Of a DNA stretch of 64,000 nt, positions 50,337 through 64,000 are shown in pieces. Source of the stretch: Calothrix sp. FI2-JRJ7 (GTDB lineage Bacteria > Cyanobacteriota > Cyanobacteriia > Cyanobacteriales > Nostocaceae); contig JAHHGX010000078.1 in NCBI GenBank assembly GCA_019359675.1, forward strand, positions 1-64,000. The letters run 5' to 3'. The first letter of the stretch is position 1, and the number at the start of each line of letters is the position of its first letter. Made by a program: the position numbers and the translations under genes. The notes beneath the pieces are model-generated. The model saw nothing but the letters and a program-made list of their open reading frames with translations. It did not search any database and had not been told where the DNA came from.

Positions 50337-50412
50337 TAGAGACGTGATTAATCACGTCTGTACAGAGTTAGGAGTTATAACTTCAAACTTATAACTCAGC
50401 ACTCATAACTAA
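50337..50412. repeat. AGACGTGATTAATCACGTCT palindrome and STRR units after rplA
   Basis: A perfect palindrome AGACGTGATTAATCACGTCT (50340-50359) follows the rplA stop, then GAGTTAGGAGTTATAA and inverted ATAACTCAGCACTCATAACT. The former belongs to the GTAGAGACG family. They separate rplA from the L10 leader and may terminate part of the transcripts. Confidence 0.65.
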
Positions 50413-50650
50413 ATATAGTAGCCAGAGACAGCAGGTGCAAAATGCTTAATATCCTGCCGAGGTTTACGTCTTAGTATTTATAACTTGGTTTCACAGCTGG
50501 AAAAGTGTGAAATTAATTTTACTGGATGTAATACGATTTTAGAAATCGACCTTGATGTAAAACCCTGGCTCTTAGCAAGCTGGGGTTTATTGTTTTTAGC
50601 GCACTAATCTATTCATTGTCGGAGACAAATCTAAAATCCTCCAAGGGGGT
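50413..50650 (+). promoter_or_regulatory. L10 leader region with hairpin
   Basis: The 240-bp leader of rplJ contains GCCAGAGACAGCAGGTGC, followed by several pairing segments and a hairpin AAACCCTGGCT/AGCTGGGGTTT with a trailing TTTTTAG (50560-50599). The first motif and position fit the bacterial L10 leader, where L10(L12)4 binds its own mRNA to control rplJL translation. The hairpin with T run may attenuate transcription. Confidence 0.6.
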
Positions 50651-62358: not shown

Positions 62359-62409
62359 CACAATAGTTAAAAGCTAATGATTAAATATTAGCTGAGACGT
62401 GCCTCAGTC

Positions 62410-62508
62410 TTACACCATAGCGGTACTCCGCTTGGTGTTAAGATGAATGCGAGGTAAAAAAGAAACCTGGGAACTATCAAATTTCTGCTCCGCAGGAAAA
62501 GATAGTTT
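62410..62508. repeat. two hairpins between dnaX and the IscB remnant
   Basis: TCTTACACCA-TAGCGG and CCGCT-TGGTGTTAAGA (62410-62444) form a strong imperfect hairpin; CTGC-TCC-GCAG inside CTATC...GATAG (62476-62508) forms another. The first could terminate dnaX or represent an end of the mobile element that brought the IscB gene. Confidence 0.5.
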
Positions 62509-62609
62509 CGCTATGCTTGAGTTTTTACTAAAGTATTTATTAACGAAAATCGATGTGAATTTATTCAAACTTCTTCATATAGGTATTTAAAACCTCATCT
62601 AGAGATGCG

Positions 62610-63113
62610 TTATTTGTTTCGGATTGAAGTTTTAATTTTTTGAATGTCAAAGTTTGCTGTTTCAACAATGATTTTTGTTAATGGTAATCTAGATGTAATT
62701 CTTTCAACAATCTTTAAATGAGCATCAAATTTATGTTGAATTGATGGAGCTAACCACCCCGAGCTACGTACACGATTATCAAATTTTGGCGCACGATGTC
62801 TTAATCTACTTCTTCTTTGCCTACGATACTTTGAACGTTCAGTAAGGCGTTCTGATACTCCGTCTAATAATTCTAATTCTCCGCCAATCAATTCTTCTTC
62901 GTCAGTAATTGCACTAAAACCGATATGCTGATAACCAGCATCAATCCCTAGTGTTACTTCTTGTTTGTAACCGCTAGAACCGTAGTTTAATTGGATTGTA
63001 AAAGGGTCATGTCCGACAATTTTAGCTTTTCCGGATTCCAAAAGTAATCGAGCTTTTCGAGGTGATGTGGGCATTAACGGTTGACCGTGTTTGTTGATAA
63101 CTAAGACTTTCAT
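62610..63113 (-). pseudogene. iscB: truncated IscB (OMEGA nuclease), RRXRR part only
   Basis: The 167-residue product is the N-terminal part of IscB, the RNA-guided nuclease related to Cas9. It has the PLMP motif (QPLMP, residues 11-15), RuvC-I LGIDAGYQHIGF with Asp58, the Arg-rich bridge helix (ERSKYRRQRRSRLRHR, 92-107), WLAPSIQHK, and RuvC-II IIVETANFDIQKIK with Glu151. It then stops after KTSIRNK. Full IscB proteins continue with an HNH and RuvC-III part to about 400-500 residues; nothing like it follows in any frame over the next 200 bp. So it cannot be a complete nuclease; it is either a remnant or a short RNA-binding derivative. Confidence 0.85.
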
Positions 63114-63121
63114 TGTTTTGT

Positions 63122-63400
63122 TGTTATTGAACTAATAAAAAGTTCATCCCTTACGGGTGGTTTTCTTTGTCAATGTTTTTTTGAGCTTTTAAAGTAGCAA
63201 CACTTTGTCCTTAACTCCAGAACTATGTTTAATCACTACCCGCAGTGTTCAATGCTAGAAAACGGCTTACCAGACCTACACATTGAAGTGCCTATATATT
63301 CTCAAAAAACCTAGTAACTCTGGTATAACGAGCTACTCAGACTAATGACACGCTTCTTAATTGCTTAAGAAGCCTACACTGTACCCCGAAGGGTGTCAGT
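63122..63400 (-). ncRNA. candidate HEARO / omega RNA upstream of the IscB remnant
   Basis: The 290 bp before the IscB ATG, read on the minus strand, are rich in pairing segments. They include GGCTTCTTAAGCAATTAAGAAGC (63352-63374, perfect stem), GAGTAGCTCG...GAGTTACT (about 63302-63340), a GGTCTGGTAAGCC segment (about 63260-63280) and CACCCGTAAGGGATG near the start codon (63145-63159). HEARO RNAs, now known as omega RNAs that guide IscB, sit at this place and begin with such a hairpin. The guide would be the bases just outside the first stem (about 63375-63390). Confidence 0.6.
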
Positions 63401-63402
63401 GT
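63375..63402. repeat. ACACTG...CAGTGT hairpin at the end of the glycosyltransferase gene
   Basis: TACACTG-T-ACCCC-GAA-GGGTG-T-CAGTGTA is an imperfect hairpin just after the stop of the glycosyltransferase on the minus strand. It may terminate that gene, or be the left-end hairpin of an IS200/IS605-like element that carried iscB. Confidence 0.55.
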
Positions 63403-63411
63403 ATGGAGTTG

Positions 63412-64000
63412 TCACCCTTTGCCTTGGTGTAATGTTTTTACCCACTTCAACCTTTTGGGTCGTACAGACATACGCGCCGTAGCACTGCTAATTACGATTA
63501 ACCAGTGGAGCATGTATATAGTGCCGCGAAGGGTTTGAAGCAAGATTAACAAATACGCGGAGACTCTAAATTTTTTATCTTTACGTATTCGCGATAATCC
63601 AACGAACATTCCTGTCATCGACATGCTAACCGCAATGCCCGTAACTGGAGCTAGCATCGGTGGACGATGGCGAATTAATGCCATTAATAAGTCTGGTACT
63701 GCTGCTGTTGGCACAATATACTGTGTCAAGAGAAATACCAACATATCCAGCGTTTTGCGGGCGCCAAGGCGATTCCGAAAAAGCAAATCCCAATAATCTA
63801 GATACCTTTGGTATCCACCTTCTGCCCATCGGTTACGTTGATGCCAAAGTGCTAGTGCATTTGTGACACCCTCTTCTTTTACCGACGGGTCAAATACACA
63901 CTCAATATTCCATTTGTCAAGATGTAATCGTAAAGTTAAATCTAAATCGTCAGTGATAGTCTCTTCATTCCAACCACCACAACGCTTTAAAGCTTGACGA
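63412..64000 (-). CDS. family 2 glycosyltransferase, membrane-bound, 3' part only
   Basis: The gene runs off the right edge; about 195 C-terminal residues are visible (codons in phase from 63999). They include TITDDLDLTLRLHLDKW (acidic catalytic motif), QRNRWAEGGYQRY (the QXXRW motif of processive beta-glycosyltransferases), and then several membrane segments (LDMLVFLLTQYIVPTAAV, SMSMTGMFVGL, AYLLILLQTLRGTIYMLHW). It resembles cellulose synthase or N-acetylglucosaminyltransferase types, which make and export beta-linked glycans. The N-terminal nucleotide-sugar part lies outside the window. Confidence 0.85.
   Translation of the reverse strand, partial: RQALKRCGGWNEETITDDLDLTLRLHLDKWNIECVFDPSVKEEGVTNALALWHQRNRWAEGGYQRYLDYWDLLFRNRLGARKTLDMLVFLLTQYIVPTAAVPDLLMALIRHRPPMLAPVTGIAVSMSMTGMFVGLSRIRKDKKFRVSAYLLILLQTLRGTIYMLHWLIVISSATARMSVRPKRLKWVKTLHQGKG

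What the first reader, a model, noticed from the sequence alone, without database searches (positions are those of the whole stretch)
62410..63402. IscB remnant with its own candidate omega RNA, bounded by hairpins
A 167-residue frame contains PLMP, RuvC-I, bridge helix and RuvC-II of IscB but stops before HNH and RuvC-III. Upstream, 290 bp look like a HEARO/omega RNA. The unit is flanked by hairpins at 62410-62444 and 63375-63402, as in IS200/IS605-like elements. Retaining an intact reading frame for exactly the RNA-binding half with the RNA next to it raises the question of a dead or regulatory RNA-guided protein. Decay is the simpler explanation.
Basis: partly seen in the sequence, partly recalled or inferred. 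Interest (0 to 1): 0.7.

Follow-up and report, generated by a model that had tools for sequence, protein, structure and literature searches.

The report
Internally deleted IscB mobile element
This is a copy of a known bacterial jumping element that has lost most of its RNA-guided DNA-cutting gene by an internal deletion but kept its guide-RNA part; it looks like ordinary decay rather than a new kind of protein.

Summary
Window 63415-62392 (minus strand) is a 1,024-bp IscB/HEARO element with an intact-looking omega RNA (Rfam HEARO, 74.6 bits, E 7e-15) and a 167-codon frame whose first 161 codons are IscB.

The same genome carries a full-length relative (1,933 bp, 441-aa IscB, 90% identical DNA). 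Against it, the window copy has a net internal loss of 909 bp: HNH, RuvC-III and the whole C-terminus are gone. The last six codons and the stop are junction sequence.

Two close relatives have the precise empty site without target duplication, so the insertion is recent. No other copy found has this deletion. One distant copy breaks four codons earlier but has lost its right end. Broken IscB frames in the family end at many different places.

The remainder is not "exactly the RNA-binding half": published IscB/IsrB structures place RNA and DNA contacts in the missing C-terminus. The frame is probably open because the deletion is young. Codon changes on its branch resemble those on the intact copy's branch, so selection on the fragment is neither shown nor excluded.

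Most likely an inert deletion derivative whose omega RNA might still serve the intact IscB in trans (untested).

The parts
62392..63415 (-). Whole element, 1,024 bp, from GTGAC (left end, 63415) to CAG (right end, 62392)
   Evidence: Empty sites in L086/L087; length
63155..63415 (-). Omega RNA (HEARO) scaffold
   Evidence: RF02033 74.6 bits, E 7.2e-15; 62 of 64 consensus pairs
63375..63403 (-). Left-end hairpin, also the first hairpin of the omega RNA; C-G to T-A double change against 9 of the 10 relatives aligned
63416..63431 (-). Host sequence that would be the 16-nt guide (last codons of the glycosyltransferase gene)
   Evidence: Position directly 5' of the scaffold; guide role inferred from published IscB
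62631..63113 (-). IscB codons 1-161: PLMP, RuvC-I, bridge helix, RuvC-II
62610..62630 (-). Six codons (TSIRNK) and stop read from junction sequence, not from IscB coding sequence
62602..62629 (-). 28-nt junction stretch of unresolved origin; the full copy has 940 bases here
62406..62601 (-). 3' non-coding tail shared with the full copy (89%)
62410..62442 (-). Right-end hairpin
62392..62407 (-). Second small hairpin at the right tip, in place of the GGCTTCT motif of five other copies
62388..62391 (-). CTAA flanking the right end (host sequence, probable target/TAM)
63412..63999 (-). Glycosyltransferase gene (part in window) whose stop codon is now supplied by the element

Best explanation
A single-copy, internally deleted (non-autonomous) IscB element. 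A full-length element, or its already shortened form, inserted precisely between the convergent glycosyltransferase and dnaX genes (insertion shown; order of events not shown). A deletion removed about 0.9 kb from after RuvC-II into the 3' non-coding region; the reading frame then ran into junction sequence and stopped (shown; that the place is accidental is inferred). The protein fragment keeps the RuvC residues D58 and E151 but lacks HNH, RuvC-III and the C-terminal WED/TI part, and is most likely non-functional (inferred). The omega RNA is intact in sequence and predicted fold (shown) and could still be made and loaded in trans into the 441-aa IscB on contig C8 (not shown).
For: Full-length copy in the same genome, 90% identical in the left part and 89% in the right tail, net loss 909 bp. 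No HNH match in the window protein, HNH present in the full copy. Precise empty sites in 2 of the 6 other genus genomes; in the other 4 the flanks lie too close for the element and no IscB is found. Neighbouring gene differs from the empty-site relatives by dS 0.027, so the insertion is young. 15 of 17 same-subfamily rows of the protein search have frames of 442-495 aa. Broken frames vary: 30 of 150 listed rows under 400 aa, from 108 to 374. Window branch 18 synonymous / 9 non-synonymous, intact copy's branch 20 / 9 with G063 as outgroup. Omega RNA keeps 62 of 64 pairs.
Against: No test of expression or activity was possible. The branch test cannot tell a recent truncation from a truncated protein under selection. 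With G060 as the only outgroup the window branch has more non-synonymous changes than the intact one (12 against 6). The other short same-subfamily frame, in G198, breaks at residue 157, four codons from this one, which is either coincidence or a weak hot spot. The maintained left hairpin cannot be dated relative to the deletion.
Confidence: 0.86

Rival explanations
1. The shortened element is a guide-RNA donor: its omega RNA, carrying the local guide, is loaded into the full-length IscB from C8, which cuts chromosome copies that lack the element and so keeps this non-autonomous copy in place by repair from the filled copy.
For: Omega RNA intact, close to the C8 scaffold, with a compensatory change in its first hairpin. 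A 441-bp copy in G062 keeps ends and omega RNA without IscB, and 11 of 25 HEARO matches in the genus show no IscB nearby. The empty allele would read guide plus CTAA.
Against: No expression or cleavage data. No other site with up to 2 mismatches to guide plus CTAA in the genome, so no present target is seen. No promoter-like site above the omega RNA stands out.
Confidence: 0.2
2. The 167-aa fragment is a functional RNA-binding regulator or trans inhibitor of IscB.
For: Frame open; PLMP and bridge helix kept. In IsrB the PLMP domain contacts the terminal hairpin with the Shine-Dalgarno sequence (PMC9581776, passages). Codon changes on its branch look constrained overall. A second copy elsewhere breaks within four codons.
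Against: RNA and DNA contacts of the WED/TI part missing. Deletion found in one genome only. R35H changes a residue shared by the eight relatives compared. Tail residues are junction sequence.
Confidence: 0.03
3. The deletion is an assembly artefact.
For: A related copy exists on another contig, and draft assemblies can merge repeats.
Against: Both parts differ from the C8 copy by about 10% and the junction holds 28 nt found in neither neighbour; flanks fit the relatives' empty site.
Confidence: 0.03

Closest known systems
IscB / HEARO elements of the IS200/IS605-like superfamily
   Same: Omega RNA 5' of the gene, PLMP, RuvC-I, bridge helix, RuvC-II, hairpin ends, insertion without target duplication
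   Different: HNH, RuvC-III and the C-terminal WED/TI part deleted; 1,024 instead of 1,933 bp
IscB-less, omega-RNA-only derivatives (e.g. L027, 441 bp, in G062 of the same genus)
   Same: Left end, omega RNA and probable right end kept, nuclease lost
   Different: Here 161 IscB codons remain
IsrB nickase
   Same: PLMP and RuvC without HNH
   Different: IsrB keeps RuvC-III and the TAM-interacting domain (about 350 aa); this does not
TldR-type nuclease-dead TnpB regulators (seen only in a search listing; the rest recalled)
   Same: Nuclease-defective relative of an RNA-guided nuclease
   Different: TnpB-derived and conserved, with the target-binding body kept (recalled); this fragment lacks the TAM-binding part and is not conserved

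Membership tests
IscB (OMEGA nuclease) | PLMP motif, RuvC-I, bridge helix, RuvC-II | tested here: met
IscB (OMEGA nuclease) | HNH domain | tested here: not met
   No Pfam HNH in the window protein; full copy has it at 193-235
IscB (OMEGA nuclease) | RuvC-III catalytic residues and C-terminal WED/TI | tested here: not met
   IscB sequence ends at codon 161 of 441
IscB (OMEGA nuclease) | Adjacent HEARO omega RNA | tested here: met
   E 7.2e-15; below the gathering score but above an intact relative
IscB (OMEGA nuclease) | RNA-guided DNA cleavage | not testable with these tools
   Needs bench work
IsrB | No HNH, but RuvC-III and TI domain present, about 350 aa | tested here: not met
   Frame and alignment; definition from passages
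IS200/IS605-like insertion | Subterminal hairpins at both ends | tested here: met
IS200/IS605-like insertion | Precise insertion without target duplication next to a fixed short sequence | tested here: met
   Fixed by empty sites for the window and C8 copies, both followed by CTAA. Six further right ends also show CTAA, but they were located with a pattern that contains it, and 2 of 10 copies examined gave no such end
IS200/IS605-like insertion | Y1 transposase in the element or in trans | tested here: inconclusive
   None in the element. 5 Y1 matches in the genome: two with internal stops, one about at the cut-off, one REP-associated and one REP-associated-like below that model's cut-off; none with similar ends
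Multi-copy MITE-like family | Several copies of the shortened form | tested here: not met
   One copy in the genome plus a 35-bp left-end fragment
Nuclease-dead RNA-guided regulator | Same form conserved across genomes | tested here: not met
   Not found in other genomes (with the limits given in the report)
Nuclease-dead RNA-guided regulator | Guided DNA binding without cleavage | not testable with these tools
   Needs bench work; the TAM-binding part is missing

The most novel reading that the evidence does not exclude
The 167-aa PLMP / RuvC-I / bridge-helix fragment is made and binds omega RNA, its own and that of the full-length element, and acts as a trans inhibitor or translational regulator of the intact IscB: a half-nuclease regulator born by one deletion.
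Probability: 0.03. Interest if true: 0.6.

Novelty: new member of a known kind. Interest (0 to 1): 0.2.

Why it matters
Mostly as a clear worked case: full copy, empty site and deletion derivative together fix the ends of this IscB subfamily and show how non-autonomous copies that still carry an omega RNA arise. If the omega RNA is used in trans, such derivatives would live off the RNA-guided nuclease of an intact relative.

Tried and rejected
Default Rfam scan: HEARO not reported, being below the gathering score; found with the E-value threshold. Junction stretch as diverged 3' non-coding sequence: its similarity was no better than shuffles, 682 of 2000, so its origin and any microhomology stay unresolved. 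Clustering of truncation points after RuvC-II: suggested by short frames; on fetching 14 stretches they proved mixed. L183 has a run of N in the frame; L181, L182, L184, L188 and L192 keep IscB sequence further on beyond a stop, frameshift or disrupted stretch; L191 runs to near a contig end; L185 lies near a contig end; L179, L180, L186 and L189 show no further IscB match; L187 is an internal deletion resuming at residue 403; L190 is the full-length G198 copy. An N-terminal query then gave frames spread from 108 to 374 aa (30 of 150 listed rows under 400; capped list, frame lengths typed by hand, not corrected for gaps or contig ends). AlphaFold2 of the fragment: mean pLDDT 47.9, only the first 40 residues above 70; the full-length control with the same 12 sequences gave 43.4, so the test is uninformative and no fold search was run. 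Promoter-like sites: 6 against 3.6 +/- 2.2 in shuffles. Guide plus CTAA in the own genome: 8 matches with up to 3 mismatches against 7 for the reversed control; only the locus itself had 2. Plasmids: one weak match; phages: none. Paper searches on truncated, non-autonomous, trans-acting or nuclease-dead IscB: in the titles and abstract starts listed I saw no half-IscB of this kind; only listings were read, and most subscription papers are not held. One search was useless.

Full report
WHAT IS THERE. The frame at 62610-63113 minus has 167 codons and is IscB by Pfam RRXRR (E 8.6e-55) and NCBIfam guided_IscB (202.1 bits, cut-off 175, profile 1-166 of 314). Directly upstream, HEARO RF02033 matches end to end at 63155-63415 minus (74.6 bits, E 7.2e-15). 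It is below the curated score of 83 and so absent from the default scan. A low score is not a sign of decay here: an intact relative (G063, 448-codon IscB) scores 70.5 and the full copy in the same genome 86.8.

THE FULL COPY. The genome (8.66 Mb in 91 contigs) holds one close full-length relative, on contig C8, with a 441-aa IscB. BLASTN joins the window copy to it at 708 of 787 columns (90%) and, for the 3' non-coding tail, 175 of 196 (89%); between the two parts the full copy has 940 bases and the window 28. The window element is 1,024 bp and the full copy 1,933 bp, a net loss of 909 bp. Codons 1-161 are IscB; the tail TSIRNK and the stop are read from the junction, whose origin I could not resolve. 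Similar divergence on both sides and the private junction stretch speak against an assembly chimera.

ENDS AND TARGET. In G061 and G062, two of the six other genomes of the genus, the flanks are contiguous...GGCAAAAG|CTAATATTT or ...GGCAAAAG|CTGATATTT. In the other four the flanks are also only tens to about 310 bases apart, and none of the six stretches has an IscB match. The C8 copy has its own empty site in G061 and G063. No target duplication is seen at either site. Window and C8 copies are both followed by CTAA. Six more right ends (five IscB copies and the IscB-less 441-bp copy L027) also show CTAA, but I located them with a pattern that contains CTAA, so that count is partly circular; L051 and L190 gave no such end. 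The element sits between a glycosyltransferase gene (PF13632) and dnaX (NF011510), which converge, inside a short palindrome (AGCTAAT...ATTAGCT) visible in the G061 empty site, and it supplies the glycosyltransferase's stop codon (GGG TGA instead of AGC TAA). The right tip differs from the full copy: GGCTTCT is present there in five of eight copies and missing here, in L050 and in L027. Whether this copy can still move is doubtful (inference).

THE OMEGA RNA. In an alignment of 11 scaffolds the window keeps 62 of 64 pairs of the RNAalifold consensus, against 60 to 64 in the others; the consensus was computed from the same alignment, window included. One pair is changed on both sides (C-G to T-A, columns 13 and 61) in the first hairpin. 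With G063 as outgroup, 7 changed columns fall on the window branch and 10 on the C8 branch.

THE PROTEIN FRAGMENT. [quoted passage not shown] It lacks HNH, RuvC-III and everything C-terminal. [quoted passage not shown] The PLMP domain and bridge helix, which are kept, also contact the RNA. In IsrB, removing PLMP or the TI beta-7 strand abolishes nicking, and the scaffold contacts all parts of the protein but the HNH linker (PMC9581776, passages). So the retained part holds some, not all, of the RNA-binding surface. Structure prediction did not help: fragment and full-length control were both of low confidence.

SELECTION OR YOUTH. Over 161 codons window and C8 differ by dS 0.50 and dN 0.054. 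With G063 as outgroup, 18 synonymous and 9 non-synonymous changes fall on the window branch, 20 and 9 on the C8 branch. Other outgroup sets give window 22/12, 18/10 and 15/10 against C8 15/6, 17/9 and 19/8. Most of the divergence therefore arose under constraint. The adjacent gene differs from the empty-site relatives by only dS 0.027. If the deletion is no older than the insertion, my rough estimate is six or seven neutral substitutions in the 483 bases since then, too few to expect a stop. Four window residues differ where the eight relatives compared agree (R35H, I90L, R110K, K140T), against one in C8 and 2 to 12 in the others: no strong sign either way.

IS THE TRUNCATION SHARED? A DNA search of 217 family genomes gave matches in 32, own genome included, and none besides the own one shows the window's arrangement; only two candidates per genome were scored in that search. 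Among loci read (26 from genome contigs, 13 from viral contigs, and those fetched until then) same-subfamily copies run 439 to 460 codons apart from the window's own; a few distant ones are shorter (for example L068 with 117 codons, L008 with 139). The protein search of 208 genomes matched 134 (capped list). Of its 17 same-subfamily rows 15 have frames of 442 to 495 aa; the two short ones are the window's and one in G198. The G198 copy breaks at residue 157, four codons from here, which I count as a result against pure scatter. But it has no similarity to the element after the break, right end included, so it is a different event. An N-terminal query of another IscB clade listed 150 rows, 30 with frames under 400 aa, from 108 to 374. 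In the genus, 25 HEARO matches (7 genomes, E up to 0.01) comprise 13 with a frame of 372 codons or more, this one, and 11 with no IscB match within about 1.5 kb by tblastn with the C8 protein.

MOBILISATION. No transposase lies in the element. Of five Y1 transposase matches in the genome two contain stops, one is about at the cut-off, one is REP-associated (171.2 bits, cut-off 80) and one resembles that family below its cut-off (64.7 bits). None is flanked by similar ends. A published survey also found only a few HEARO nucleases with TnpA (PMC9755519, passages).

CONCLUSION. Best read as a young, single-copy deletion derivative of an IscB element with an intact omega RNA. Use of that RNA in trans by the C8 IscB is plausible and testable. 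A function of the half-protein is unlikely but not excluded.

Noticed in passing
L027 1501-1941 (G062): A 441-bp IscB-less element of the same kind with left end, omega RNA and a probable right end before CTAA: a guide-RNA-only derivative.
   Followed up: partly
G000 contig C81 119231-119265 (L011 832-866): A lone 35-bp left-end fragment of the same element between two genes; no right end found in the stretch.
   Followed up: partly
L118, L123, L126, L130, L133 (genus genomes): HEARO RNAs of 86-121 bits with no IscB match within about 1.5 kb: candidate stand-alone guide RNAs.
   Followed up: no
L179 (G198:C259), minus strand: Another IscB copy of the subfamily cut at residue 157, four codons from the window's break, without a right end.
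   Followed up: partly
window 62392-62407: The right tip is a small hairpin in place of the GGCTTCT carried by five of the eight copies compared.
   Followed up: partly
G102 contig C1: Ten listed IscB matches with identical score in one genome: apparently a recent burst of an IscB element.
   Followed up: no
window 50404-50600: Ribosomal protein L10 leader (RF00557, 65 bits) elsewhere in the window.
   Followed up: no
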